Positions 309 through 41,837 of a stretch of DNA of 64,000 nucleotides are shown piece after piece. Under the pieces are notes generated by a model that saw only the letters and a program-made list of their open reading frames with translations, had not been told where the DNA came from and did not search any database. A program made the translations under genes and the position numbers. This stretch comes from Thozetella sp. PMI_491. Its lineage: Eukaryota; Ascomycota; Sordariomycetes; Chaetosphaeriales; Chaetosphaeriaceae. The stretch covers positions 730,420 through 794,419 of the forward strand of contig MU270028.1 of the NCBI GenBank assembly GCA_021432635.1, written 5' to 3'. The stretch's first letter is position 1, and every line of letters begins with the position of its first letter.

Positions 309-2530
309 CTACGGGGCATTGCTACCAGCCTGATTCTTCATATTCTTGAACGCCTTGCTGATCGAGTACCAAACCGATGACATGCGTCGGGATTTTCTAT
401 ACCGCAGTGCCACGCTCCCTACGGCTTCGAACAGTTCGTGAATCCCTTCACGAGTCACGTTAGAGCATTCAAAGTAGCCAGCTGCCCCGATTCGGCGTGA
501 CATAGCTAGTCCCTAGGCATAGTGTAAGAAGACAGTAGCCGGACTGGAAGGAAAACTTCACAAGGAATGTCACCTACCTCCGCTGTGGTCACTGGTTGTT
601 GACCGACCCTTTTCAGGTCCTCGATGGTTCTCTCGTTTACTCGTAGCTCCTTCTTCATACCCACTAGCACATATGGAGCGCCTTTTGCAAAGTGCTGCAC
701 CTCAGGTACCCACTATGTCGTGTGAGCGGGACATGAAAGATATATAATTAGGGGTCAGTCTCTTACCTTTTCAAATACGTTGTCAAGTGAATCAGGGCTG
801 TCAATGGCGTAGGTTATGATATAAACATCCGTTTTGCGGTAATAGATTGGCCGAGCTCGATCGTAGTCTTCCTGTCCACGCGTATCGTAGAGCATGAATT
901 GAATAGTCTGATCATCAACCTGAGTTACGGGAGTATAGATCTCCCATGAGTTGAGGAACAGCTCCTATAGCGATCCACCTTGTTAGAAGCGTCTTGCTTG
1001 GAAAACAGATGAAACAAGATAGCCCTACCCAAGATTTGGTTAACCAATCAGTCTCCTTGTCAGTATCGGAATAAGCACTATTTGTGTAAGCAAACTGGCA
1101 GCCAAATCCCTGTCTTTATGCCAACCATGTTGCGCTTACTTGAGCATAGTTGTCTTGCCACTGCACCCGTCCCCAACCAAGACCACTTTAATTTGGGCGT
1201 CTGCCGCCCAATGCAGTTCCCGTGGCCGCGCCATGATTTCCATCAGTTCATCATAGACAGTTCTCCGCTGTTTCGGACGCTCATCTTCTGAAGTCTCCTC
1301 CTTGCTCACAGTTTCCTCATAGACGGGTGGTGGTGGTTCATTGAAGACTAGGTCTCGCTGGGATCCAACCACTGAATTGCTCGGTGGAGACTCAGGTTCC
1401 CATGCTAACTCAATCTTCGTCTCTTTTGGTATCGGCTCATCCACAGTCGCCGTGCCATAAGTCACCGAGGACATAACATCGAATACCGCAGACCATGCTA
1501 CTGACGAACTGGTCTGGGGTTCTTCATTGTTGTTGAGGAGCGGGCCGGTCGTGTTGGCTGCATCCGTGCGAGATTTGCCCTCTCCTGACGGATTTGGTTT
1601 GACATCATTCGACTCGATCGCCCTTGCCGATGACAGGCGAGGACCTATTGGTTTCCGGAGAATAGAATTTACAGAGATGTGTGTCTCGGCTAGTTCAGGA
1701 GTCTGAAGCGCTGTGATTTGTGAGTCGATTTGTTCCTGCAAATGTTGAGGCTGGGGTAGGTCCTCGGGCTTATTATGGCCAGAAGCAGCAGCTTCGTCCT
1801 TTGGCTCCTGGCTCTGGTCAGCAACGGGAATCTCGAGACTCGGCCGTCCTGATACAGCGTGAATACTGCCCCCATCAGAGCTCCAGTCGACATCATTGAC
1901 CACTGTCTCTGCGTACGAAGTCAGGCTGTCAAGCCACTTCTCCAGGACGGAGGCCTGTCCCGGCACAGCCGCACTCATGCCGCCCCCGGACACGATTGCC
2001 CGCAACCGCGCCAGCTCCTCGAGTATTTGGGTCGTGTCCAGCTTGATGTCCACCACACCCTCGCGGATGGCGCTTGTGTCCTCCTTGGTGCTCTTGGCCA
2101 GCGATATGGAAACGAGCTCCAGGGCCAGCTCCAGCGATCCCCGGTGCGCCTCCAGCGACATGCGCAGTCCCGCGGCCTCGGCCTTGCCAAAGGCCACCCA
2201 CTTCACCGAAGTGACGGCGCCTCCGATCGCCTTCCCGGCCTCGACATTGTACCTCTCGAGCAGGTCGTCGATCTTGTCGACGACAGCCGTGCAGTTGGCG
2301 ATGATGGAAAGGATCTGGCGCTGGAGGGTGTCGGGGATGACGGCGGCACCGTGGTCCTCGTGGAGCAGCTCGAGCACGATGCGCAGCTCCGACAGCTGGA
2401 GGTTGACGGCCGTCAAGTCGGCACGCGCATCGCGGCAACCGCGGATAAAGCTGGCGACGCTGACGGTCGTCTTAGCCACGGCCGAGATGAGCGAGAGACA
2501 GCCTGTGGTAATGCTCAGCGGGTCCGCCAT
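309..2530 (-). CDS. HeLo-like N-domain fused to Rho-type small GTPase
   Basis: The first exon (2530-1140) opens with MADPLSITTGCLSLISAVAK, the typical start of the HeLo-like N-terminal domain of fungal STAND/NLR proteins (about residues 1-200). A Ser/Pro/Glu-rich linker follows, and the same uninterrupted exon reaches a GTPase P-loop, VGDGCSGKTTML. Four further exons (1077-1029, 964-767, 713-574, 505-309) supply the rest of a Rho-family GTPase: switch-II DTRGQEDYDRARP (family DTAGQED), AIDSPDSLDNV, a G4-like VGMKKELR and a G5-like YFECSN. The protein ends in QAGSNAP, with no CaaX prenylation box. Oddities are Ala-to-Arg in switch II, Asp-to-Glu in the G4 motif, a short effector loop and the missing lipid anchor. 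By family knowledge the HeLo-like part could act in membrane-targeting or cell death; coupling to the GTPase is inference. The last donor is read as GTAG|GTGAC because this restores the conserved frame. Confidence 0.85.
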
Positions 2531-3300
2531 GTTGTTAGCTATTTCTTGGCGGGTCGTGGGTGTTGTCTTGCGGTGCGCGTGGCATGGTAGCTTGTGCGAA
2601 AGAGCAGCGAAGTTCTTGTCACGGTCCCCACGCGCCAGCTGAGGCTGGATCGCGGCTTTGTTCAGCTCACGTGCGAACAGGGCGGCGCGCTAGCTCGTCG
2701 TCGCCGTCGCGGGGAAACATTCAGCTGAACCCTAACCCGGAGAGATAAGGCAGGCACCCTTTGATCCCTCCTTGCTAGGTATAGTCCTTGGGAATGACGA
2801 TTCTTCTGTAGGATGATTATACGGATGGCAACCCGCTCTCCTCACTCTCCTCTCGTGAAGTCCGTCACTTCGGGGACCATGACACCCCGCATCTCGGCAC
2901 GAGTAGAAATTCTGTAGCTAAACCTAAGGACATAATACACCCTGTAGAACGAAACTCGGGGTAGAGGAATGAACTAGCAAGCTCAAAAGAAGCTCTATCT
3001 TTACCATAGACTAAAGGCTACTAGGGTTTTGTATATTGTCTGCCTCCTATCCACTTGTTAACGGCATGCGTCAGACGCCGGCTTGGCTGTCCTTCTACCC
3101 GGCCATAAGCCCCGCATAGAACATGAACGCACAGCCAGTCATGACCCCAGTCACTCGATATGTCTGGCACTTATCTCTAGCCCCACTCAAGCCGAAGCCG
3201 AAGCCGAAGCCGACGCGGAAACCGAAAGGCGAGATAACATCGCCGTGCCTGCGCACTCTCCTACACGGACTCGAGAACGCTCAACATCGTAGGCTTAAAC
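2531..3300. other. intergenic region
   Basis: This is a divergent intergenic region between the GTPase fusion gene and the Zn2Cys6 regulator. It must hold both promoters. There is a short GAAGCC repeat (AAGCCGAAGCCGAAGCCGA, near 3192-3215) but no recognised site or gene. Confidence 0.4.
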
Positions 3301-5804
3301 ATGGCCAGTGCGACCAGTGGAAACATGGACGAACGCCCGCTCCGCCGTCGCAATGGCCGCTTACAGGCTTGTGATCCTTGCAGGAGCAGAAAGGCACGCC
3401 GTCCGGCTAAGCCGTGAATATACTGGGTGAATGCCGAAGCTGATCTTTTACAGGTCGCCTGCGATCACTCCCGGCCAGTGTGTCTCAGGTGCCAGAAAAG
3501 TAAGACACGCTGTGTGTATACGCTCTCTGGGTATTTGCAGTCGGCATCTCGGTCGGCGCTCGCCTCCCCTCCAGAGTCTGTGACAACCCCGCCACCACGC
3601 CCTGGGCCGCCAGCGCCAAGCGCTGCGCAGCCACAAAACCCTTCGATAGGAAGCGCGCCGGCAAGCCTCGTAGGTCGCCGGCTGACGAACTGGGCCGCAA
3701 CTGGATACCTCGGCTATACTAGCTACTCTACCGTCATCGAAGAGACTCTATCCATCTTAGATGACAGGCCGGATAAGGAGATGGCGTCTGCCCCTGCTGA
3801 CGACGACGACGATGGGGGCGGCGGCGTCACCATCTCCCGCAATGCTATCCAGCTTGGAGTCACCGTTTTGACCCATGTTCCGGAGCCCGAGCAAGGCTAT
3901 GCGCTGCTCCGGGAACCCAAGCCGATGGACACCTGGATCCACATCATAGCCAGACGCATCTTAGGCTCCTTATACCGGGAGTTTGGCGCGGTCTTCGGAA
4001 AGAACCGAAGCCAAGCTCAGCTCGAATGGTTAGCTCACAAGATTTGTATGAACTGTACGCGGTGTGTTTCCGACAACACGAATGGCCCAGACGAATGGCT
4101 TGCGCAGTTTGAAGGTCCTAATCTGAGGTGGGAGTCGCTAGGTAATCCATCTAAACATTTATACATTGTCAAAGCCAAAAGGCCATTGCACTTACTCCCC
4201 CACTCGTAGGTCTTCTCTTCAACTTCTGGAATATTTCCGCCGACCCAGCGGACCCGGAACGCAAACTACCCGACATTCGACCACTCTACGACTACTACTT
4301 TCCAGCCGCCCACGAGTGCTTAGTCCGCTGCATAGAGCTAAGCCAGGAGTTTTGCGATTCAAACGTCATTCTGTTATATCTGCACTACCGACAGACCAAT
4401 CTGGAGTCTCTGGTATCAGGGGAAGCTGGTAAGGAAACCCGAAGTGGATGCGGAATGGGCCCAAGTTACAGCTATACAAGACTGACTCTTCGCATTTCCC
4501 ACTAGGCCGTCAAGTTTGGCGGTCTCATGCGACAACAGTATCAGCTGTCACCTTTTTTGGACTGCATGCCGAGACCGATGGCAGCGATTACCGGCCAACA
4601 TTGCAGTCCGAGGCCAAGAGGAGGGTTTTGGCGGCTGTCATTGATGTTGACAAAGAGTATGTTGCGGCACCGTCTTCTTCTTGAAGTCCTAGAGGTTGCA
4701 TTTGTCCGTTTGGTATTCAAGTTGTACTTTCTGTTAATGTTGATGGTAATCACGTCCTGACCATGGCTTCTCAGACTTGCTGCCTTCACCGGCCGGATGC
4801 CTCTCTTGAGCCATGCATTCACGACAAAACCCTTGCCCTTGGACCTTAAAGACGAATACTTGTTCATGGATGAAGAGACGCTCTTCGCGAAAGCACAAGA
4901 AACGCTTGACAGCCGGGGCTGGAACACCGAGGGCGGCATATATTCGGCGACATACTTGCGCGGTGGCGTTATTCTCTCACGGCTCCGCGAACAAGTCATC
5001 GAGATTGCTCTAGGCCATGCAGCTACGTCATCCATTCAAGATATCCTGTAGGTGACATGTAGCCACCTCCGGTCAAGGAAAAGCTAATATTGCTTAATAG
5101 GAAACTTAAGGCCCTCCAGGAGGAAACGATTGCCGAGTTCCCGGGCCAACTGGTCTACAGCCCTGCTGATCTTCTCGACCCAGCCGTGGGAGATATCGAG
5201 ATTCAAGCAAGACTTTCTGTGAGGTTCGAAAAACTGCAGAATGAGTTCTACATGGACCGCCTGCTCCTTCGAAAAGGCCATGTCGACGACGGGACCTTAC
5301 TTAACACCAGCTTTGAGCTCATATCAGCGGTCATCACCCTCTGGACCAACGCACATCGGTTCGTGCGAAACAGGGCCAACCTAGGCTGGACTGTGAGATT
5401 CGCGTCCTTTACAGACCAAGTTTTTGTACAGACCGACTAACATGCAGAATCAATAGTCCATATGCTACGGTGCTCCTGCCGGGGCGATTCTATGCAAAGA
5501 GCTGCTCCGGCCCACACTATCAGGCCTGCACCCGAAGAATCCGGCGATCACGAGGTCCTCAATCATCCAAAAGCTCTCCTTGTTTGTGGGCTGCCTAGAA
5601 TGGGTGACTATGTGGGGTTCGAATCGGGAACTGTGCCGAGAGTGCAAGTCGGTGATCCAGCGCGTGTTAGATCATGCCCTGAACGCCACGGGTGCCGAGC
5701 AGCAGATGACCGGCCTGACTGACTGGGACCTTGACGTGCCACTTGACTTCAACTTTGACCTTCTCGAAGCCTTCGATTATCTCCGGCCTGATACCCAAGC
5801 ATAA
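3301..5804 (+). CDS. Zn2Cys6 transcription factor with fungal-specific TF domain
   Basis: Seven exons are proposed: 3301-3393, 3454-4141, 4210-4428, 4506-4656, 4775-5047, 5101-5392 and 5457-5804. The DNA-binding zinc cluster spans the first intron: ACDPCRSRK joins VACDHSRPVCLRCQKSKTRC, giving exact CX2CX6CX6CX2CX6C spacing. This works only if the intron is GC-AG (AAG|GCACGC ... CAG). The middle region has the fungal-specific TF domain landmarks, including DKELAAFTGRMPLLSHAF and a Leu-rich LPLDLKDEYLFMDEETLF. The C-terminus ends in LDFNFDLLEAFDYL, an acidic-hydrophobic segment that could activate transcription. The gene sits about 90 bp from the dehydratase-like gene (convergent) and near the dehydrogenase and permease, so it is a candidate pathway regulator of that group. 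An alternative start is the in-frame ATG at 3325. Confidence 0.88.
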
Positions 5805-13990: not shown

Positions 13991-14349
13991 GCTGTGCCAT
14001 CAGAGAAATTTCCTCTAGCCACTGGGTCGGTAACCGAGGAGCAACTGATTGATTAGCCTCGTTGCTACGGACCACACAGCGAAACAAAACTACAGCGTGA
14101 TGATAAGAAGCACTTGCATATAATATATAGAAAGGCTACCTAAGTTACAAGACTTCTGGTCCTTTTAATTATCTTCACTCAGGTAAACAGGAAGGATTAT
14201 CCCGACGAGGCCCAGGATATAGCTAAGCTTCCGGATCACGTGATCTTACTACCGAAAGTCTAGTAAGGCTTAGGCTTCGCCGAAACAAGCTCTTCGCTCG
14301 CAACGTTTTCTACTACCCAGAATATGTAACATTCCTCAACTGTGTGCCC
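13991..14349. other. intergenic region
   Basis: This lies upstream of the protein kinase gene. The first part is still moderately AT-rich. No gene was seen. Confidence 0.4.
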
Positions 14350-16012
14350 ATGGCTCTACGCGCTCGACTGCGCAGCGCACTGGTCCCAAATCCAGTTGAT
14401 AGATATAGGCAGTTCATTCCATGCGGCGTGTTTGGCGATATCGTCCACGAAACAAGCGTCTTTGCTGAGCTGGAGCCGTTCCAGGACCTTGTCGCCCACG
14501 AACGATCCCGGCTCGCAAGGGAAATCTGCCACGGTAAAGCGGGCTGTCTGGAACCGTTTTCAAGAGTATTCGCAGCCCTGGTCTTGTCAGGGCTGCCGGA
14601 AAAGATCGTCTCATTTCTTGAGATTGATATCAGCGACAGTTCGCTCCCATTCCTCTGGCAGTCAGAGTTGGCCGACGGAGATCCCGCACCCCCACTCTCG
14701 GCCACAGAAACCGACAAACTTGTCACCAAAGTCGCCGATGGATACAAGACGTGTGGCTTCATGGACTCCTGGCCTAGGACTTGGCTGGAGGCCTTCTTTG
14801 CCGAGCAGTGGGCCTTCATAGCGCCCAGCTTCCCGGACACGGCCGGGCAAGTACAGTGCATGCATCTCACGGCCCATCATGTTCTCCCCATCGTCGCGGA
14901 CCTCGGTCGTGTTGACCTGGATCCACTGAGCGCCTCATTTGATGAAGTTGACTCCATACAACGATTTCCAAATCGTACGAATGTTAGGGCAGTCCGCCTA
15001 CACCGCCAGCACTACGAAGTTGGCGCTCCATCCGTAAGCCCCCCCCTTGAACACCCTGTTGCCAGCGCTAACACGGAGGAAATAGTTAAATGTTCCAGGC
15101 CAGCCGTTCGCTTTCAAGTGGGTCTCGACCACGGAGAGGCAGCGTTTTGTCCAAGAGCTGAAGCTATTGAATGTCATGAGGCAGCTAAATGACAAACACA
15201 TCATTCGGTTAATTTCGGCCCTCGAGGTGCAGCGTGACGGCTTCTATTTCATTTTTCACTGCGCTACGGGGACCCTCAATACCCTCTGGCGTACTCGCCC
15301 GGACCTCGTTCGACAGCCTACAATGCAGGCTTGGATGGCCCGACAATGCCACGCTCTAGTCGGCGCTCTGGCCAAAGTCCATGGAAGCTACCAGCAGGCC
15401 CACAAGCAGCGTGCAATCCGACACGGCGACCTGAAACCGGCCAACATCCTCTGGTTCGCTGCGGGTCAGGATGTCGAGAAGTCGGAGCTCGTCATCACCG
15501 ACTTTAGTCATGCAGAATTTGTTGATGAACTGCAGTCTGGAGATGCAGCTTACATCAACAAAAATGCGCTCCATCCTCGCCCGAGTTACCAGGCCCCGGA
15601 GGACGAGGCCAGAACAGTTCCTGTCGCCGGCACGGCAGCAGATATCTGGACTCTCGGGTGTACATTTCTGGAGTTTGTAACTTTCTATCTTGCAGGCTGG
15701 CAAGGCGTCGACGCAGAGTTTCCACGGGCACGAATGACTGCCGAGGGGGCGGCGCGGGTCACATCTGATGCCTTTTACTCCTTTGCGGATGGGAAAGCCA
15801 CTGTGAAGCCCCAGGTTGAGCGATGGGTTGCCAAATTGCGTATCCAGCAGGGCTCCTCGAGATATCTGCGCGAGCTCTTGACTATAACCTCAGAAAAGAT
15901 GCTACAGGCCGATCCTAATCGGCGTGCTCGGTCGGAAGTTTTAGCTCGGGAGTTGCAGAGCCTACGCCATCGATGCGACGACGACGACACATATTATGAT
16001 GCACAGGTGTAA
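14350..16012 (+). CDS. divergent protein kinase with fungal N-terminal extension
   Basis: Two exons (14350-15033 and 15086-16012) encode about 536 residues. Residues 1-190 form a helical region (for example DLVAHERSRLAREICHGKAG and SGLPEKIVSFLEIDI) found in a fungal-expanded kinase family. The kinase domain follows: the ATP-binding lysine in FAFKWVSTTERQRF, the catalytic loop RHGDLKPANILWF, and an APE motif in YQAPEDE with DIWTLGCTFLEF. The usual DFG is DFS (ITDFSHAEF), and the catalytic loop has HGD in place of HRD. The Asp residues for catalysis and metal binding remain, so activity is possible. The intron joins GAPS to LNVPGQPFAF in phase 0. Substrate is unknown. Such kinases are often found near HET/NLR genes. 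Confidence 0.82.
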
Positions 16013-19955: not shown

Positions 19956-20046
19956 GCTACTATAAGTACTCTGTCAGAACGACCGAAGGGATTCGAAGAT
20001 GGTAGAATATAGTACTATAGAGCGTAGTATAATAATATATGGAATC

Positions 20047-20675
20047 CAACCTGGCACTTATTGGCAAGGCCCTGCGACACCCTGCGATAGGCGAGATCCT
20101 CCAGTAGTATGTCCAGGACATAGTTAGATATACACAGAACATTTAAAGAGACGTCGCTATCATTAAGAAATCAGTAGGGCTGAGCATAAAGGCGCTGAAT
20201 ATAGCCAATTTTCACCGGACAAAGAACGTAGCCCCGTCCTAGGTATAGGTAGCAGCGTAGGCAAAAGGCCGCCCACCTATGAGTGTTTCTATATTAAGGA
20301 GCTAGTCTGCCGTTATAATATATAAAGACCATGTGTTAATAGTTAAGCTTAAGGATTATAGCATCGTATAATAATATTAGGTATTAGGTATAGTCAGTAA
20401 TATAGACAAGACAATAAGTAGAGACTGTAGTACACGGTAATCCAGCTACGAATATAGTTAAGGTAATCGCAGTATATTAACTTAAGAGCGGCGATATTTA
20501 GATCTCCACTAATACGATAACTGAGGCTATATGACTGAAATAATATAAAGGATGGCTCAGAGGCTTGGGGGAGTATATAGAAGTGATCGTCCTAATATAT
20601 GGAGTGATCATCTATGATATCTCTACCAGCTCTATTAATATGAAGGACTAGAAGGTAACGACCCAATAGATACTT
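20047..20675 (+). mobile_element. non-LTR (LINE, Tad-like) ORF1 remnant, RIP-degraded
   Basis: On the plus strand this AT-rich region still reads pieces such as LIGKALRHPAIGEILQ, LKSGDI, TNTITEAI and YGVIIYDISTSSINMKD, separated by many TAA/TAG/TGA codons. The order matches the nucleic-acid-binding ORF1 of fungal LINEs. Most stops sit where CAA or CAG glutamines would be expected, which is the RIP pattern. No endonuclease or reverse transcriptase region was found. Confidence 0.6.
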
Positions 20676-20677
20676 GA

Positions 20678-20906
20678 TGTGATGGCCCAGGGCCATCCCC
20701 ACGCGTTACACCACGCGTTACACCACGCTCGTTCGTTTGCAACCACTCGTTTGCATCCACGTGATATAGTGGCCCAGTTGACCACTATATCCATCCATCT
20801 TGATCTGTAGCTTCCGTTTACCTTCTTCCTCTCTTTAGCTTAGTATTCTGTGCGTTTTTAATACACACGGCTACAGATCCAGTTCATCGCCGCCAGCGCC
20901 GTGACA
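20678..20906. mobile_element. possible LTR fragment
   Basis: The segment starts TGTGATGGCCCAGGGCCAT and ends CAGCGCCGTGACA, that is TG...CA ends like an LTR, and it has an unusually GC-balanced composition inside AT-rich DNA. A short direct repeat (ACGCGTTACACC twice) lies near its start. No target duplication or partner copy was found, so the call is weak. Confidence 0.35.
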
Positions 20907-21098
20907 CTCGTAGATAATTATACTGTAATCCCCCGAGTAGAGATTTCGTATATAGTGAGAACGGGGAGCAGGAAGCAGAGCACGTGCGGAACAACCCACA
21001 CACAACACCACCACCATACACTCCGTAGCCTAGTAGCCACAGCGCGGAACCAATACCGCGACCTTAGGTCCAGTTCGTAGGTACGGCCATTGAAGCAG

Positions 21099-21417
21099 CG
21101 TAAGTTTAGTGGTACGTGGGAGAGGGCATGCCTATGCGAGGACCAACGAGTGCTGGGCTCTGACCAGAGCAAGATGAACACGTAGGAATGGGGCGAGGCC
21201 CCGTAATGGTCGTACGAAGTTGCTTTTTGGTTGGTCTTGTTTAAGGAAAACGAACGTGTAAAGTTGATTGCTAGATAGATGGATGATGCTCCGTGATGGT
21301 CCTCCCCGAGGTAGGACGGCATCCCTTAGCTACTTATACAAATCAGGCTGTATGGTCTGATCAGACTAGGGTCTAGATCCACCACGTAGCTCATCTAGTA
21401 CCAGCGCCACGCTGGGC
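21099..21417. repeat. 320-bp dispersed repeat, copy 2
   Basis: This is the second copy of the repeat at 12845-13165, same orientation, 8.25 kb away. The best-kept parts are AGAGGGCATGCCTATGCGAG, GGGCTCTGACCAGAGCAAG and the TATAAGTAGC-like block on the minus strand (TAGCTACTTATACAAATCAG on plus). The flanks of the two copies are unrelated, which fixes the ends of the unit. Confidence 0.8.
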
Positions 21418-21909
21418 GAAAGTTCTCTCTGTGAAATGAGTGTACTATTGACCTCTAGATACTTGGTTATTCATATATAGGGCATCTGAGCTACTAAGAT
21501 ACAGAATGGCGAGAAACTTATAATAGCATTTGCCTAGTATAGAAATATTATTATCTTTTTCTCAACCAACAGATCAAAGGCATTCTAGGTGTTTATAAGT
21601 CAATTCCACAGTTCTTAGGACACAAGACACGTTATATCCAACAACTGCTATATACATCTATGCCGCCAGTATATATACTTATGCTAACATATCACATATT
21701 TTTATTAGATACAAATACCAACTGCTCTATCACCCGATACACCTAGTCTGAAGTAGTTACGCAGAATACACTGGAATATAACGCCGCCATTGCATATTGA
21801 ATGGTTAAGCACGACGGAAGTCGGCTTCTAGTGGATTAGCCACATCAAAAAACCTGTTCAACGAGGACCGGCCGGTCCTTGTCAGCCGAGACTACTAAGA
21901 GGTTAAGGA
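21418..21909. other. AT-rich intergenic DNA
   Basis: There is no gene. The sequence is AT-rich with no recognised element. Confidence 0.4.
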
Positions 21910-22251
21910 TCAAGTGTAAGGCCCCAGAGCATACAGCCTTACAACAGGTCACGCAGCCTAAAGCAGAACCTAGAAGGTTCACGAGCAAGGGAGAATAGCC
22001 AGTATGACTCCAGTACATACTGCAACCGGCTTAGGAGTCAGGCAGGAAACGCAGGGGGTTAGGAGCCGAGTCAGGACCGAACCCAGGAGGAAAATCCTTC
22101 ACCTGTATAAGTAGGAACCCTAAGGGCCTCAAACTTAAGGAACTTAAGGATCAGTCTCTGTTACAGCCTTAGTGCTCTCAACCGAATACATACCCCTTCT
22201 CGTGGCCGAGCTGTTCCACCACCTGATACCTGCCTAGGGCATTACATCAAG
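21910..22251. mobile_element. solo LTR with 5-bp target duplication
   Basis: A 332-bp unit at 21915-22246 starts TGTAAGGCCC and ends GGGCATTACA, giving inverted TGTAA/TTACA ends. It is bounded on both sides by TCAAG (21910-21914 and 22247-22251), a perfect 5-bp target site duplication. No internal retrotransposon region is attached, so it is a solo LTR left after recombination. The intact duplication suggests a moderate age. The family cannot be decided from the LTR alone. Confidence 0.85.
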
Positions 22252-23400
22252 CTAGTCGTAAGCTCTTTCACGAACCACTCTAAGAGAGCGGCGCCACTTG
22301 GTTTTTAAGACGGTTTTAGACAGCTTTTTTTACCTAGTACTAATATTTTTTAACAAAAGGGCGAGTAACAATTATGCCCTAAGACTTTAAACACTTAACA
22401 AACTAAGACACTAATCTATAACCAACTCTAAGAGAAGTTTTTAAATATCTTCCTTACTTATTATAATGTCTTCTGCTAGCTCTTATACTAATATTCCAGA
22501 TATCTAGCGGTTTAGACTCAATATACTGTTATTATTTATAAATTTAGTAAAGCCTAGAGTCAACTGTTCCTTAAACCTAGTATGAAACGCATATAAAAAG
22601 ACAGTTAAGTTGGGCATCGTGTATAATCTAGCTAGGTTGTTTCGCATATTTTTATCCCTTGATAACGTTTTCGGCTTGACATATGATTATACGTACAGAA
22701 TCTCTTTTTAAGTAAAAGACTTCTATTTAAGATTAAGCCTGCTAGTAAGTATTTAACATGCTGTGCTGTATAAGATAGCACTAGGTAAAAGACACAAACT
22801 GTTTAAATCTTAAGATGACAAAACTAGCAGTGTAGGGATCTAGGCCAATATTAAATTGGTTCTTGAAGAGAAGTATCAATGGGTTAAATATGTCCTTGGG
22901 CTGTGGTCAGTAATTTCCAGTGGGCTGGGAGGAGATGAGTCTAAAAACCTACCGCCTGGAGATAACAGTGCATTTTAAAGGCCATGCCCTTTTAAATAAG
23001 GCGTTATATCAATCCAAAGGAGGCTCTGCCTAGGAATAGCATATGTTGGATAGACTTTATTATGTCATAAAGCAGACTAAGGGAGAGGTTGTAGAGCAAG
23101 TGCCTCCTGGACTTAGTTATTGTCTCGACTGTTTTAATGTATCAATAGTACCAAGCTCTACTCCGCTAGACTCTTTAGTTGTATCTTATAGTTATAATAT
23201 TATAATATATAACTAGCTCTTCCTAATCGTGTGCCACTAGCTCTTTATAGAAGTGTACTTTAAGGTTTACCGGGCTTTGGATCCTTTCTAAGGCATTAAT
23301 GTCTAAGAGGACTTTGACGGGCTTGCTTGACCAGCTGCTAAGGCAGTTTAGAAAATCTAGAGCGAGGAGGTGCCTATGTAGAATTTCGTCTACCTTTGAG
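22252..23400. other. AT-rich, probably degraded repeat DNA
   Basis: This is strongly AT-rich. The minus strand keeps a short readable stretch (about 23400-23223: SSKVDEILHRHLLALDFLNC, then KPVKVLLDINALERIQ) followed by many stops. It looks like a decayed coding sequence of a transposon or gene, but I do not recognise the family. Confidence 0.4.
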
Positions 23401-24480
23401 CTATAGGGAGCGTTGATCGCCAGGCTGAGGTACAACGCTGTATAAGATATATGAATGAAATGGGCTTTTGAGGCGCCTCACCAAGTCGTGCTCACTTTCC
23501 GGCAGATCTTCGATGCCATCTAGATCATCCTTCTGGAGTGTGCCGCGGAGAAAGTATTTGTGTGGGCTAGCGTGATTTTCTGAACATCTTCGGCTAGATG
23601 GCTGAGACGCGGTTCGATCGCCAACAGTTTGTGCGCTTCCGAGCGGAACAGGCGACGGTACAGCGGGGCTGTCAGATAGTATAGCAAAGTCCCCAATCCG
23701 CACCATGCGGCAAATCGAACCCCATGCCACGATGCCGACACGAATGATCCTTTCAGTAAGGGGCGGACGTGCTCGGGAAGACATAGGGGTGATCCCTGTA
23801 CTCCGATCCTCTGCACTCTGTTGGGTATGGCAAGACGACCCGCCATGACGACAGAGCTTCCGCCCTCCGGCATTTGCCTCCGCCGCCTCTGGCGGATCTA
23901 TCTCTCCTCGCCCGACACGGACTTGCTCGCCCAAAGCCCTTATACAGTAACAACCAGCCAGACCTCCGCATAACCTTCAGATTACCGGCCGGGGTAAAAC
24001 TCCAGGTCTCGCCGACGCATTGTATTGCTCTCTCATACATATAGATGGGACCACCCTGTTTTCCATGACCCTATATATATGGCCCTTCGCTGAGGAGATC
24101 AATACATACATCCAGTCGGAGCACCCCCCCCCCCCCCCCCCCTCTCCCCCCGGGCTCCACCCTCCCAGGCCCTTTAACCACCATCAGATGCCGCCCCGGC
24201 CCTGCCAGACTTCCTGAGGACCTCCGAAGGACACCAGGATGCCCAGCACGCTGAGAGGAGCGCTGATTCAGGGGTATTTACTTCAGCACAAGAGAGACCG
24301 CGAAAGGCGGCAAGGAAAGCTTGCGTGATAGAAGTGAAGTTCGCCAAGCTGTGGGTGAGAACTCTTAAGGTTGAAGTGATAATATGGCTGCCAAGAGAAA
24401 GGGTATTGCCAAATGGATGAGATCTCTCAAAAGTAGAGTGAAAAGATGGCTGCTAGGAGATTGAAACGCAAGAATCTCAG
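23401..24480. other. intergenic with 19-bp C homopolymer
   Basis: This stretch has higher GC content than the flanks. A run of 19 C lies at 24124-24142. Minus-strand open frames cross 23400-24040, but none shows a recognisable domain. Confidence 0.4.
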
Positions 24481-29835: not shown

Positions 29836-32675
29836 TTACCAATCTAGGGGGTAATCCTCCGGGGCCAATCCAAAGTACCCAACATCGGGAATCGGGAGCA
29901 GCGTGGAATTCTGCTTATACGACTGGAAGTCAACGCCGGCCGTGCTGACGGTGTTGCCCCACCAGTTAATTGCCACACTCGCGCCGAAGGCGAAGGCAAA
30001 GGTCTGGATAATACCCGAGATGGCCACCCCGACGTTGAAGCCTGCCTCGAGGATGTAGTTGTACTTCTCCCACCAGGCGTTGTACCGTCGCTTGATCCAG
30101 TACATGAAGATGAAGGAAAGGTACATGCCGTTGGTGGCATATGACAGGTTGTTGCCGCCCGTCCAGTTCAGCGCGCCCGCCCACGTCACAGCGGGGTCGA
30201 TGCGGCCGACGTAGCTCAGGGGCCGGAAGACGAAGCGGTTCCAGGTCGCGAAGCGCGCCTCGGACCACTTCCGGCGCGCGGCGTCGCTGATCTTAGGGCC
30301 GTAGCGCTGTGCGAGACCCCATGAGGTGCCGATCAGCGTCCCCATGAGGAAGCACCAGGGCAGGATGGGATAGAGCTTGAACATGTTCTTGACGCCGAAT
30401 GCGCCGTATTCGACGGCGCTAGCGAACACTAGCACGGCGTCCGTGCACACAAAGTGCTGGGCGTTTTCCCACGTGCAGAGCGTGCCGGTGTTGAAGTTGT
30501 CAATCATCCAGTTCAGCATGCCGATGAAGATGAAGGTGTTGATAAACGCAGCCAACATCTGCGCTCGGAACACAGCACGAGGCGGTAGCTTCGAGTAGTG
30601 TGCAAGCTTTTGATCGGCGATATATGTATCGGCCTGGGCGTTGAAGTTGGATCCGAACGCTGTCACGATGATCTGAGCCTCGGCGTTGCCGGCGAACCAC
30701 ACACCAGCCAGCAACTGGAAGAGCACGTTGAAGCCCATCGACACGTTCGCACCGGCGTAAAGAATTGCAGAAGGGATCAAAAACACTCCGCTGAGCACAA
30801 TCACTGTAATTACAACCCACCAAGGCGTATGTGTGGGCCAGTTCTGGAGCGCGGCGATGCCGAAGCCCATGGAGACGAGGAGCACCAGGAAGAACCACCA
30901 GTCCGGCACTTCCTTATAGGCCATCATCATACGCGTGTGGGCGTCCGTGTTTCCTTCCCAAATCGACGTGCGGTGCCGGATGGATTTCCACATCTCCTTG
31001 CCGGACTTCTTGAGCGAGTCCCAGTATTTGATGGTGACGTAGGTCAGGGTCAGGGGGTACCAGGCGAACCAGGCGCCCTGGCCAAAGACGTTGGCACCCG
31101 AGAAATACGGTGGACCGTATTGCTTGTAGGCCTCAATGTTAACACCACCGTTTCCGTCCGAGATGATGGTGGCGTTGTAAATGCCGCCCTGGTTGTTAAA
31201 GGCCTCGTTGCTGTTGATCGGCGTGTAGGCGGCCCAGGCGTAGTTGGTCCAGTACATGCCGATGATGATCAGCCCGGAGAGCACCCGGGCGCTGTACTGC
31301 TGGATTGCGCTCCACCACGGGGTCACCAAGTGCCCGGTGCCGGACACGTTCCAGTCGAAGGTCGCGATCGGGTTGAAGCCCATGCCGCCGTAGAATCCCG
31401 TGATCATACCGAGGCTGAAGTTGTCGGGCGCGATCCACGTCATCCAGTTGAAAGCGTGCAGGGCGGTGAAGAGGGTGTTGGGGATCCAGTACCAGAGGAA
31501 CATGGCCAGGAAGGCGAGCATGAAGAAGCGGTACCGCGTCATGGTCCAGCCGTTGGCGACCTCGCCCTTCTTTTCCGGCACAACGAGGGCGCGGTTAAGG
31601 GCGACAATGGGCAGTACCTTGGGCCAGATGGCCGTGACAGGGAAGATGACGAAGCGCCGCAGCAAGCCGGCGAAGCCGAAGCCGAAGAACTGCACGGCAA
31701 GGGCCAGCACGATCTCGTAGCCGAACGACACCCACGTCTGGCCGAGATACTGCGGGAGCCGCTGCACGATGAACATGTAGTACGTGCTAGAGATGTTATT
31801 CGCGATGGTGAACATGATGGTGGCGAACATCTGCTCCTTGTGAGACCACGGCCCGGGGTTGAGCGAGATGCGGGAGCCGCGGACGGTGAAGCCCCAGTCG
31901 GGCAAGGCCTTCGCTAGGAAGAGGCCGCAAGGGGCCAGCAGCAGCTGCATGACGTTGGCGCTGAGCGAGATGGCTGGCTGGCGCGGGCTGAAGAAGGTGT
32001 TGAGCGCCGTGGAGCCCGACATGAAGACCAAGCCGAGGAAGTAGGATCGGATAGTCTCGACGGGCAGCGTCGGATCGTCGAAGGGATCCGTGACGGAGCG
32101 GACCTCTGGATAGGGTGAGTGGTACTTGATCATAGCAGCCTCGGTGCGCGCCTCCAAGGACCAGTCGGACTCTTCCATCTCGGTCACTTTGGCGCCCTGG
32201 ACGAGGCTCCGGATCTTGGTCATGGTCCAGTCTGGGAAGTTGGGGTCATCCTAGGGTAGCGTGAGAAAGGGCTGCAAAGTCACGCGCCACGGGCGCAGAT
32301 GGAGGCGCCCGTGGGCTGGGGAAGCAGTCTGCTCACCTTGTGGAACTCGATAGCTTCCAGCAGGATTTCGACTGCCTCCTCATCGGTCATGACGATGATA
32401 CGCTCGAGGATGGCCGTCACGTCAGCCCGAGGGGCGATCTGGTCGTCCTCAGCGATGCGGCCATAGTGCTCGGCGACCTTCTGCCGCATCTCAGGCGAGA
32501 TGGTCCGTCCCTCCCGGACAGCGGCGACGATGTCGTCGACCTCCTCGGCGGCGGCGATTTCATCGTGGCCGGCCTTTTCGTTCCGCACCTCAGCCTTCTC
32601 GTCGTCAGCGGCGGGAGAGGGCACAGCCTCGTTGCTGGCCACCTGCTGGATATCGGGGTCGTTTTCCTTGGCCAT
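29836..32675 (-). CDS. oligopeptide transporter (OPT family) 1
   Basis: Two exons (32675-32337 and 32250-29836) are joined by an 86-bp GT-AG intron, HK|DDPNFPDW, for about 917 residues. The cytoplasmic N-terminus is acidic. The family signature SPYPEVRSVTDPFDDPTLPV precedes the first membrane segment. Many hydrophobic segments follow, with OPT landmarks such as WYWIPNTLFTALHAFNWMTW, GFYGGMGFNPIATFDWN, YKEVPDWWFFLVLLVSMGFG and LAGVWFAGNAEAQIIVTAFG. The end is APEDYPLDW. Members import oligopeptides, glutathione or metal-ligand conjugates by proton symport at the plasma membrane or vacuole; the substrate here is unknown. The start at 32675 (MAKENDPD) is preferred over an upstream in-frame Met at 32708. 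A TATATA box lies about 90 bases upstream. Confidence 0.93.
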
Positions 32676-39335: not shown

Positions 39336-41837
39336 CTATGATTTACAGTAATCTGGATTGACACCGGATGGATTCCCCCACCATGTTGGGAATGGTGTCT
39401 CCTGCCCGCTCGCACCAAAAACAGCAAATGACAGGATGAAAATGATGATCTGCGCGCCTCCGTCCAGCGCCGCGCCGATCAGGTAGTTGTACTTGTTGTA
39501 GATGCCGGGCATACGCCGCCGCAGATACACCTGCGAAAAAACGCCCACGGCGATGGACGACCAGATCCACGACGTGTTCCCGTAGTATACGGTGCCCGCG
39601 TACGAGCAGATGATGGCCGTGTTGATGGGCCACTTGCGCAGCGAGGGGAACGCCTTGACGATGCCCCAGTGGATCATGGGGATGAAGATGCCGAACACGA
39701 TGCCGAGCGGCACGAGCAGGTAGCGCTCGGTAGAGCCGTACATCTGCTTTGCCAGGGCCCACGAGATGGCCTGCGAGTTCAAGCTCTGCATCAGCGAGCC
39801 GCTCCAGACGTTGGTTCCCTGCGAGTCTAGGAGAATGTCACGCTGGCTGGTCACGATGGAGGTCATGACAATGTAGTTCAGGCCAGCGCCGAGGAGGGTA
39901 CCGTAAATCTGGGTAGCGAACATGACGCGGTGGGGCACCTTGGTGTACTGGCCGACCTTCAGCCAGCAGCCCAGGTTCACGGCGAGGAGGATGACCTGGT
40001 GTGACCAGCTGGCGAAGTAGAGGTTGGCCAGCGGGCGACCGGGGTGGAGAGCACCCGCCATCATCTTGGAGATGGCCGTGGTAGAGACACCGTTTCCATA
40101 CATGCCGAAGAGGATGCAGGAGAAGGGGGCGATGATGGCACCCAGGATGAGGGCGATGATGTAGCCCCAGACGGGCAGCGTCGTCTCGCCCTTGATGTTG
40201 ACGACCAGGCCGGCGATGAAGCAAAGGCCGAACAGGACCAAGTACCACCAGGTCGGCACCTCCTTGTACTTGAGCATGGCCCGATAGTGCGGGTCTGGCT
40301 GGGTCCGCGCTCGGGCCTGCTTCCAAGCGAGAACCATGTCCTTGCCGTAGAAGAGTATGATGTGGCTGATCAAGGCGCCCATGGCCAGGTTCATGGTGAA
40401 GTAGCCCCAGATGGCACTGGCCGTCATGTAGGGCAGGCCAACGGCGCTCAGCTTAGCGTTGTCGATGCTGCCCTCGCTGTTCATGATCGACTTGGGCGTG
40501 AACTTTGTGCCGTTGGCCAAGAACATAGAGGTCGACATGAAGGGGAAGCTCTTGGCATTCCAGGCGTTGCTGTAATACAGGCCAAGCACAGCGATGTACC
40601 AAATGCCGTAGCCGATCCACGAGTTCATCTGCTGCTTGAGCGGCAGCGACATGTACGTGCTCTGGATGTACTGCCAGTCGAGCGAGAAGTTGAGCAGGCC
40701 CAGGCCCTCGTTGGACGAGGCACCGCCAAAGATCTTGGTGAAGACGCTGCGTGTAGCAGACGGAGCGTTCATGGACGCTAGGCAGAAGACGGAGATGCCG
40801 CCCAGCCAGGGGAATGCGTAGGCAGGAAAGATCTCCCAGACGGCGGCAATGACCAGCGCCCAGCCGAACTTGATCAGGCGGCTGCGGTTCTTGCGCCGGT
40901 CAAAGTGCAGGTTCTGGTAGAGCACGATCTGCGGGAGGGTGGACCAGTATACCATCTCGGAGGGGTACACGATGAGCGGCCGAAGCAGGCCGGCGAACAC
41001 GAAGCCGCATAGCGAGATGGAGAAGGTGCCCAGGACGGCCGTGGTGGCCGAAACGGTGGTGTTGTAGAATAGACGCTCTACGGCGTAGATCTCAACACCT
41101 GAGAGGCCGTTGTTGCCAGATGAGGCAATGAGCGAGGCCACAACGTGCTCCTTGATACCGAAAGGCTGGCCAAAGTTGAGGAATCGCAGCGTGGCCTGCA
41201 GCCACTTGCCCGGTACACGCTCCGGCTTGGGCGTCAAAAGGGCCCATGCTTCGCCCAGGATGAACACCAGGACTGCCAGATATGTGAGCCAAGAGAAAAA
41301 CGAGGGTTAAAAGGCTTGCAGGGGAGGGTAGGACGCACGCTGGATGAAGATCAGCGAGACCTGCATCTGTGTGGGCTTAAAAACGTAAAGCATCGTCACC
41401 ACGCTGGCAAAAGCGGTGAGAATGGTGCCCAGGAAGATGGACCGGAAGGTCAAGGCGGGGTCCCCGTCGTCCCGGGTCGACACCAGGAAGCGGGACACGT
41501 CGACTCCTGTGTAACATGTCAGCAAGGTCCGGCGCGGACAGCAGACGCATCGGCATCGGCCGTGGCGGCGACGGCGGCGGGCGTACCATTCCGGATGACG
41601 GCGTGGCCTTTGACGTATTCGGCATCATCCTCGGGCTGGGAGTCCCCGAGACTGGCCTTTTCCGACGCTCGGACCGAGCTGCTCGTCGTGGTGTCGGTAA
41701 CGGCCGTGTTGGGCGAGCCGGGTGCCTCGGTCACCACGACGGCCGTGTGGCGAGCGTCCTTCTCGTTGACATCGTCCTTGATGTCCCTCGGGCCCGACCC
41801 CGACGATCCTTCGACAGAGCCGACAGAGAGTGCCATT
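39336..41837 (-). CDS. oligopeptide transporter (OPT family) 2
   Basis: Three exons (41837-41587, 41506-41339, 41272-39336) encode about 785 residues. The start MALSVGSVEGSSGSG is chosen because the longer frame upstream begins with TTG. An acidic, Ser/Thr-rich N-terminus leads to DGDPALTFRSIFLGTILTAF, the OPT entry motif and first helix. Later landmarks are FILGEAWALLTP, WLQATLRFLNFGQPFGIKEH, FVFAGLLRPLIVYPSEMVYW, NEGLGLLNFSLDWQYI, YKEVPTWWYLVLFGLCFIAG and a C-terminal TPFPTWWGNPSGVNPDYC. It is only a distant paralogue of OPT gene 1, belonging to a different OPT branch. Substrate is unknown; peptides or glutathione-like compounds are typical. It is convergent with the lactate dehydrogenase. 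Confidence 0.92.

What the first reader, a model, noticed from the sequence alone, without database searches (positions are those of the whole stretch)
309..2530. HeLo-like cell-death-type domain fused to a Rho GTPase
One long uninterrupted exon carries both the HeLo-like N-domain (normally found in front of NACHT/STAND modules) and a GTPase P-loop; later exons complete a Rho-type GTPase. The GTPase part has no CaaX box, a changed switch II (DTRGQED) and a weak G4 (KKEL), so the HeLo-like part may supply membrane contact while the GTPase acts as switch, replacing the NACHT module. The fusion is seen in the sequence; the signalling idea is inference.
Basis: partly seen in the sequence, partly recalled or inferred. 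Interest (0 to 1): 0.8.

Follow-up and report, generated by a model that had tools for sequence, protein, structure and literature searches.

The report
HeLo-like domain fused to Rho-like GTPase
A fungal gene joins a helical domain of the kind that helps fungal proteins kill cells to an altered Rho-type molecular switch, a pairing that may put membrane attack under the control of a small GTPase instead of the usual immune receptor.

Summary
On the minus strand, five exons (2530-309, four GT-AG introns) encode 658 residues. Residues 2-168 match Pfam PF17111 (Helo_like_N): E 2.4e-6, but only 0.3 bits above cutoff when trimmed and below it in longer frames. Residues 448-623 are a clear Rho-type G domain (Ras E 9.1e-29; RhoA E 4.2e-47; 82 of 182 aligned residues identical). 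Exon 1 holds the whole N-domain, a 260-residue acidic linker and the P-loop, so the fusion does not rest on splice prediction. GC3 falls from 0.86 to 0.52 at codon 203, a probable seam. The G domain keeps G1 and DxxGQ, but G4 Asp is Glu, G5 SAK is SNV and switch I is remodelled; no CaaX, but a basic amphipathic tail. I infer an MLKL-like design: a helical-bundle effector restrained by a nucleotide-binding, probably non-cycling Rho-like domain. That mechanism is untested: no confident fold of the N-domain was obtained, no fungal sequence collection could be searched, and three searches pairing HeLo and GTPase terms returned no paper. Verdict: real fusion, new combination of known parts.

The parts
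309..2530 (-). Whole gene, ATG to stop, five exons, 658 aa
   Evidence: Spliced translation; Pfam on the product
1140..2530 (-). Exon 1: HeLo-like domain, linker, P-loop (residues 1-463 plus two bases of codon 464)
   Evidence: Continuous ORF
2027..2530 (-). HeLo-like N-domain, PF17111 match (residues 2-168)
   Evidence: E 2.4e-6, 27.5 bits vs cutoff 27.2 for residues 1-181, 23.7 bits for the full protein; 0 of 6 controls hit it
1205..1984 (-). Acidic linker, residues 183-442, net charge -22
   Evidence: no Pfam hit here
1319..1330 (-). PPVY (PPxY-type short motif, name recalled), residues 401-404
   Evidence: Pattern match; short motif, may be chance
1151..1174 (-). G1 P-loop GDGCSGKT, residues 453-460, form GxxxxGKT
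1078..1139 (-). Intron 1, GTAAGC...TAG, CTTAC branch-like site by reading
1029..1077 (-). Exon 2, 49 nt, part of switch I region
965..1028 (-). Intron 2, GTAGGG...TAG, CTAAC branch-like site by reading; rival acceptor GAG with intron end at 941
767..964 (-). Exon 3
866..886 (-). G3/switch II DTRGQED, residues 507-513; DxxG and Gln kept, Ala to Arg
713..766 (-). Intron 3, GTAAGA...TAG
578..712 (-). Exon 4, with the Rho insert region (name recalled)
   Evidence: gapless alignment to Rho1 and RhoA chains
644..664 (-). G4 VGMKKEL, residues 563-569, Asp to Glu
513..577 (-). Intron 4, GTAGGT...TAG
309..512 (-). Exon 5 and stop
453..470 (-). G5 ECSNVT, residues 606-611, SAK to SNV
339..392 (-). Basic amphipathic tail, residues 632-649, in place of CaaX
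   Evidence: Moment 0.57, net +4; 9 of 2000 shuffles of the tail reach it, but other windows of the protein reach 0.58-0.63

Best explanation
The gene encodes one fusion protein: an N-terminal HeLo-like domain, an acidic linker that looks disordered, and a divergent Rho-type G domain with a basic amphipathic tail. Shown: the two families and their joining in one exon. Inferred: the HeLo-like part is a membrane-directed helical-bundle effector, and the Rho-like part is a nucleotide-binding regulatory module that no longer cycles like normal Rho (altered G4, G5 and switch I; intact P-loop and DxxGQ). A change in nucleotide state, or a partner binding to the G domain, would release or cluster the HeLo-like part at a membrane. 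This is the design of MLKL, where a pseudokinase holds a 4-helix bundle, with a pseudoGTPase-like domain instead of the pseudokinase, and it takes the place that NACHT has in HeLo-like NLRs.
For: PF17111 match from residue 2 and profile position 1, with no such hit in 6 controls; Ras E 5.6e-30 for the G domain, RhoA E 4.2e-47, 82 of 182 aligned residues identical; P-loop in the same exon as the HeLo-like domain; stop-free linker; GC3 step at codon 203; most hydrophobic 19-residue stretch of the protein is residues 11-29 (Kyte-Doolittle 1.65), near the N-terminal end that in HET-S holds a membrane-targeting helix (PMC12881547 and PMC7885112, passages). HELLP, a HeLo-like protein, moves to the plasma-membrane region with death of the fusion cells when it meets the PNT1(1-31) prion (PMC7885112, passages). 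In P. anserina 18 of 20 non-NLR HeLo-like genes are listed as up-regulated during incompatibility (PMC4835503, Table 4 as shown). In NLRs, HeLo-like is almost invariably with NACHT and swaps of N-domains are documented (PMC4986451, passages). MLKL is classed with nucleotide-binding, non-catalytic pseudoenzymes (PMC5593906, passages).
Against: PF17111 score is borderline and below the cutoff in longer proteins. Structure models of the N-domain are low confidence (mean pLDDT 55.8 and 62.9) and no PDB fold matched at E<=0.001, so the 4-helix bundle is not shown. No NLR, HET or second HeLo-like hit in the 30 ORFs scanned, though the downstream neighbour lies outside the window. G1 and DxxGQ are intact, so normal cycling is not excluded. 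No homologue or expression evidence.
Confidence: 0.4

Rival explanations
1. The HeLo-like domain is only a membrane or scaffold adaptor, and the protein is an unusual Rho signalling protein (cell wall, polarity) that uses protein domains instead of prenylation to reach the membrane; no cell death is involved.
For: No CaaX and a basic amphipathic tail; intact P-loop and DxxGQ; strong Rho similarity including the insert region. The fungal survey finds CaaX in 99 of 111 Rho proteins, so it is absent in some (PMC8146680, passages).
Against: G4, G5 and switch I changes argue against ordinary cycling and effector binding; HeLo-like proteins tested experimentally act in cell death (PMC7885112, passages).
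Confidence: 0.33
2. Integrated decoy: the Rho-like domain is bait for factors that attack or modify Rho GTPases, and its modification triggers the HeLo-like domain.
For: Eroded but recognisable Rho copy fused to an immune-type domain; precedent of decoy domains in immune receptors (recalled, not searched).
Against: No direct evidence; the switch I region, a usual target in Rho (recalled), is the least conserved part.
Confidence: 0.12
3. Decaying gene or chance fusion: the HeLo-like part was placed in front of a degenerating Rho paralogue and the product has no selected function.
For: GC3 step at codon 203; eroded G motifs.
Against: 658 codons with no frameshift or stop and four GT-AG introns, stop-free linker, conserved Rho core.
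Confidence: 0.1

Closest known systems
HeLo-like (PF17111) NLRs: HeLo-like + NACHT or NB-ARC + repeats
   Same: HeLo-like N-domain in front of a P-loop nucleotide-binding module in one chain
   Different: The module is a Rho-type small GTPase, not NACHT or NB-ARC, and there are no C-terminal repeats
HELLP / HELLF (HeLo-like effectors with C-terminal amyloid motifs; PMC7885112, passages)
   Same: N-terminal HeLo-like domain as possible executioner
   Different: C-terminus is a GTPase instead of an amyloid motif; no NLR among the ORFs scanned on the side inside the window
MLKL (4-helix bundle + pseudokinase)
   Same: Design analogy: helical-bundle effector with a C-terminal nucleotide-binding pseudoenzyme
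   Different: Regulator fold is a GTPase; bundle fold not confirmed here
Rho1 / RhoA
   Same: G domain and insert region; 82 of 182 aligned residues identical with RhoA
   Different: 447 residues before the G domain, no CaaX, altered switch I, G4 and G5
Trichoderma Rho6 and Big Ras GTPases (BRG, TBRG-1; PMC8146680, passages)
   Same: Fungal GTPases with long extra regions; BRG also has a poor G4
   Different: Rho6 extension is about 130 residues with the G1 Lys replaced; BRG has G5 Ala to Trp and was found by BLAST with TBRG-1; neither is described with a HeLo-like domain in the passages seen
Multidomain or eroded Rho-like proteins: RhoBTB (listing), Miro (PMC8146680, passages), p190RhoGAP pG1/pG2 and Rnd (PMC5593906, passages)
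   Same: Rho-like domains with extra domains, or with altered G motifs
   Different: Other partner domains

Membership tests
PF17111 (HeLo-like; named PigL_N in this Pfam copy) | Profile score above the gathering cutoff | tested here: inconclusive
   27.5 vs 27.2 for residues 1-181; 23.7 for the full protein; 24.5 for exon 1
PF17111 (HeLo-like; named PigL_N in this Pfam copy) | MLKL/HeLo-type four-helix bundle | tested here: inconclusive
   Helical but low-confidence single-sequence models; no PDB match at E<=0.001
PF17111 (HeLo-like; named PigL_N in this Pfam copy) | Membrane targeting and cell-death activity | not testable with these tools
   Needs experiment
Rho GTPase family | Ras-superfamily G domain closest to Rho | tested here: met
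   PF00071 E 5.6e-30; the 60 PDB matches shown of 756 are Rho or Rac chains, some fused to other proteins
Rho GTPase family | Rho insert region between G4 and G5 | tested here: met
   Gapless over this region in the 5 alignments shown to Rho1 and RhoA chains
Rho GTPase family | G1 and G3 key residues | tested here: met
   GDGCSGKT and DTRGQE
Rho GTPase family | G4 (xKxD) and G5 (SAK) | tested here: not met
   MKKE and SNV
Rho GTPase family | Switch I effector loop with Thr37 (RhoA numbering, recalled) | tested here: inconclusive
   7 to 8-residue insertion in the alignments; Thr placement depends on alignment and on the intron 2 acceptor
Rho GTPase family | C-terminal CaaX | tested here: not met
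   Ends NQAGSNAP
Fungal NLR | NACHT or NB-ARC plus repeats | tested here: not met
   No such Pfam family listed up to E 10 for the full protein (HMMER filters drop most above 0.1)
HELLP/HELLF amyloid-controlled effectors | C-terminal amyloid motif | tested here: inconclusive
   C-terminus is a G domain and no HET-s motif family listed; other amyloid motifs not screened
PseudoGTPase | One or more G motifs lost | tested here: met
   G4 and G5 altered; definition from PMC5593906 (passages)
PseudoGTPase | Loss of nucleotide binding or of hydrolysis | not testable with these tools
   Needs biochemistry
BRG (TBRG-1) | BLAST similarity to TBRG-1 | not tested
   No TBRG-1 sequence was compared
Trichoderma Rho6 | About 130-residue extension and replaced G1 Lys | tested here: not met
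   447 residues before the G domain; G1 Lys kept (GDGCSGKT)

The most novel reading that the evidence does not exclude
An MLKL-like executioner in which a HeLo-like four-helix bundle is gated by a covalently attached Rho pseudoGTPase: a direct wire from Rho (cell-wall or polarity) status to regulated cell death in a fungus, without an NLR or amyloid step.
Probability: 0.25. Interest if true: 0.85.

Novelty: new variant of a known kind. Interest (0 to 1): 0.52.

Why it matters
HeLo-like domains are among the most frequent effector domains of fungal NLRs and in NLRs are described as almost invariably joined to NACHT (PMC4986451, passages). One wired to a Rho-type GTPase would show that such an effector can be controlled by a small-GTPase module, linking fungal cell death to the Rho pathway, and would be a GTPase counterpart of MLKL's pseudokinase control. 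It gives a compact single-gene system in which that control could be tested.

Tried and rejected
Single-sequence AlphaFold of residues 1-231 and 1-167 gave low confidence (mean pLDDT 55.8 and 62.9). Foldseek against the PDB found nothing at E<=0.001 for either (0 of 288 and 0 of 620 matches with E<=10; best E 0.17 and 0.13). The 50 rows shown for each are mostly assorted helical proteins; I draw nothing from them. The pdb_via library was not available.

phmmer of residues 1-181 against PDB sequences gave 10 hits at chance level (best E 0.44).

Relatives: one viral-contig scan with the G domain and one genome contigs (prokaryote) scan with the N-domain confirmed none (2 and 93 pattern stretches, 0 confirmed). 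No fungal protein or genome collection was on hand, so homologues with this architecture could not be counted.

RIP as cause of the GC3 step: the indices of the low-GC3 part (TA/AT 0.64; CA+TG over AC+GT 1.20) resemble those of three other genes of the window (0.51-0.59; 1.17-1.37), so it is not favoured.

Splice enumeration scored by RhoA similarity (pruned search): the top chain (428) used a 48-nt intron with an AAG acceptor and a 40-nt intron and was rejected on splice signals; the second (417; GAG acceptor, intron end 941) shortens switch I to near RhoA length and is kept as a rival to my TAG acceptor at 965. My model was not among the 12 chains printed; scored apart it gives 413. I keep it for its CTAAC branch-like site and TAG acceptor (splice preferences recalled). 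Introns 1, 3 and 4 are the same in all 12 printed chains.

Amphipathic tail: 9 of 2000 shuffles of the tail reach its moment, but windows elsewhere in the protein reach 0.58-0.63, so it is a lead only.

Big Ras GTPases and Rho6 were considered as known homes and set aside on the features given in PMC8146680 (passages only).

Literature: all 10 searches used. HeLo-like + small GTPase + fungal, HeLo domain + Rho GTPase, and Helo_like_N (read by the tool as 'heloliken') + GTPase returned 0 papers. One paper that holds both HeLo and GTPase, PMC4835503, uses them apart (all 9 passages). PMC9815663, PMC4986451 and PMC12881547 hold no word beginning with GTPase. Papers seen as passages: PMC9815663 (also abstract and outline), PMC8146680, PMC12881547, PMC4986451, PMC7885112, PMC5593906, PMC4835503; the rest only as listings. 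The library is open-licence PMC only, and databases of domain architectures were not seen.

Full report
Gene model. The gene is on the minus strand of what looks like a filamentous-fungus sequence (short GT-AG introns; Fungal_trans_2 and a borderline Zn_clus hit nearby); the species is not known. Five exons, 2530-1140, 1077-1029, 964-767, 712-578 and 512-309, give 658 residues and a stop. Introns are 62, 64, 54 and 65 nt, all GT...TAG, and by my reading each carries a CTNAC-type branch-like site near the 3' end. Introns 1, 3 and 4 are the same in all 12 chains printed from a pruned enumeration of 297 candidate GT-AG introns scored against RhoA. Intron 2 is less certain: the TAG acceptor (intron end 965) gives a switch I 7 to 8 residues longer than RhoA and a score of 413, while a GAG acceptor (intron end 941) gives near-RhoA length and 417. 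I prefer TAG on splice signals. The fusion itself does not depend on this, since the N-domain, linker and P-loop are all in exon 1.

N-domain. Residues 2-168 match PF17111 over profile positions 1-164 of 209 with E 2.4e-6. This is the family that PMC9815663 calls Helo_like_N (passages). The bit score is 27.5 against a cutoff of 27.2 for residues 1-181, 24.5 for exon 1 and 23.7 for the full protein, so membership is likely but borderline by score. None of 6 controls (one reversed, five shuffled) hit the family; the reversed one hit other families at E 0.038 or weaker. SesA appears at E 0.084; PMC4986451 merges SesA with HeLo-like (passages). Structure models are helical but of low confidence and match no PDB fold significantly, so the bundle fold is not shown here. 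The most hydrophobic 19-residue stretch of the protein is residues 11-29; in HET-S an N-terminal helix targets the membrane (PMC12881547, PMC7885112; passages).

G domain. Residues 448-623 match Ras PF00071 (E 9.1e-29 in the full protein, 5.6e-30 alone; Roc and Arf score less). The best PDB sequence match is RhoA (E 4.2e-47), with 82 of 182 aligned residues identical. With the G4-G5 segment as query, Rho1 (3a58_B, yeast by recall) ranks first. G1 (GDGCSGKT) and G3 (DTRGQE; Ala to Arg) keep their key residues. G4 is MKKE. The four Rho1 chains aligned have CKxD there, so the notable change is Asp to Glu. G5 is SNV for SAK. Switch I is remodelled, and whether the RhoA Thr37 counterpart survives depends on splice model and alignment. 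These changes meet the sequence definition of a pseudoGTPase in PMC5593906 (one or more G motifs lacking; passages), but binding and hydrolysis are unknown. The C-terminus has no CaaX; residues 632-649 form a basic amphipathic stretch (moment 0.57, net +4; 9 of 2000 tail shuffles reach it; other windows of the protein reach 0.58-0.63), a possible lipid-independent membrane contact.

Linker and fusion seam. The 260-codon linker is stop-free in the coding frame (0 of 5000 Markov shuffles are), has 6-17 stops in the other five frames, and carries net charge -22. GC3 is 0.86 up to codon 203 and 0.52 after it; the log-likelihood gain is 37.9, reached by 0 of 500 permutations. Ten comparison ORFs of the window gave gains of 2.0-17.8; 5 of these 10 also had a step reached by at most 1 of 200 permutations, but they are stop-to-stop frames that can include introns or non-coding ends. 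The step falls after the HeLo-like domain, and the G domain shares the low GC3 of the linker (0.54 and 0.53), so order versus disorder does not explain it. I read it as a seam between parts of different history.

Surroundings. Of the 33 stop-to-stop ORFs of at least 200 aa, one is this gene, two are antisense to its exon 1 and were not scanned, and the other 30 were scanned against Pfam at E<=0.01: transporters (sugar, two OPT), a TIM-barrel protein, a protein kinase, GST, GNAT, SDR, P450 and transcription-factor pieces, but no NACHT, NB-ARC, HET or second HeLo-like hit. Shorter ORFs were not scanned. tblastn of the protein against the window gave no second copy (other hits E 0.65 and 0.76). 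The gene ends at 309, so its downstream neighbour is outside the window.

Mechanism. Most likely (0.4): a HeLo-like effector restrained by a Rho-like nucleotide-binding module, as MLKL's bundle is held by a pseudokinase. Shown: the two domains, their fusion, the altered motifs. Inferred: bundle fold, membrane attack, restraint, trigger. Rivals: an unusual membrane-placed Rho signalling protein (0.33), an integrated decoy (0.12), a decaying fusion (0.1).

Comparison with the known. In NLRs HeLo-like is almost invariably with NACHT (PMC4986451, passages), but in P. anserina 20 HeLo-like domains are outside NLRs against 4 inside, and 18 of the 20 are listed as up-regulated in incompatibility (PMC4835503, Table 4 as shown); so a HeLo-like domain outside an NLR is not rare in itself, and it is the Rho partner that is unusual. 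HELLP and HELLF pair the domain with amyloid motifs (PMC7885112, passages). The fungal small-GTPase review reports 111 Rho proteins of 151-338 residues, Rho6 with an extension of about 130 residues, and Big Ras GTPases with a poor G4 (PMC8146680, passages). None of the passages seen describes a HeLo-like/Rho fusion, and three searches pairing HeLo terms with GTPase terms returned no paper. The architecture may still sit unremarked in sequence databases, which could not be searched. I therefore file it as a new variant of a known kind.

Noticed in passing
window 1922-2530: Sharp GC3 step inside the gene at codon 203 (0.86 to 0.52), larger than in ten comparison ORFs of the window.
   Followed up: yes
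window 1319-1330: PPVY motif in the linker, of the PPxY type that binds WW domains (recalled); could link the protein to a NEDD4/Rsp5-type ligase, or be chance.
   Followed up: no
window 1853-2642, + strand: Two long open frames (245 and 259 codons, stop to stop) antisense to exon 1, probably a by-product of high GC3.
   Followed up: no
window 3301-4206, + strand: Probable Zn2Cys6 transcription factor gene transcribed divergently from the finding (ATG at 3301 by reading; Zn_clus 20.9 bits, just under its cutoff of 21).
   Followed up: no
window 20001-24000: AT-rich stretch (GC 0.44) with TA/AT 1.24-1.33 and CA+TG over AC+GT 0.91-0.96, a mild RIP-like signature.
   Followed up: no
window 29839-32250 and 39339-41306, - strand: Two OPT oligopeptide transporter ORFs within 12 kb.
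   Followed up: no
window 14227-16012, + strand: Protein-kinase ORF (15086-16012) overlapping a 321-codon ORF without a Pfam match that may be its N-terminal part.
   Followed up: no
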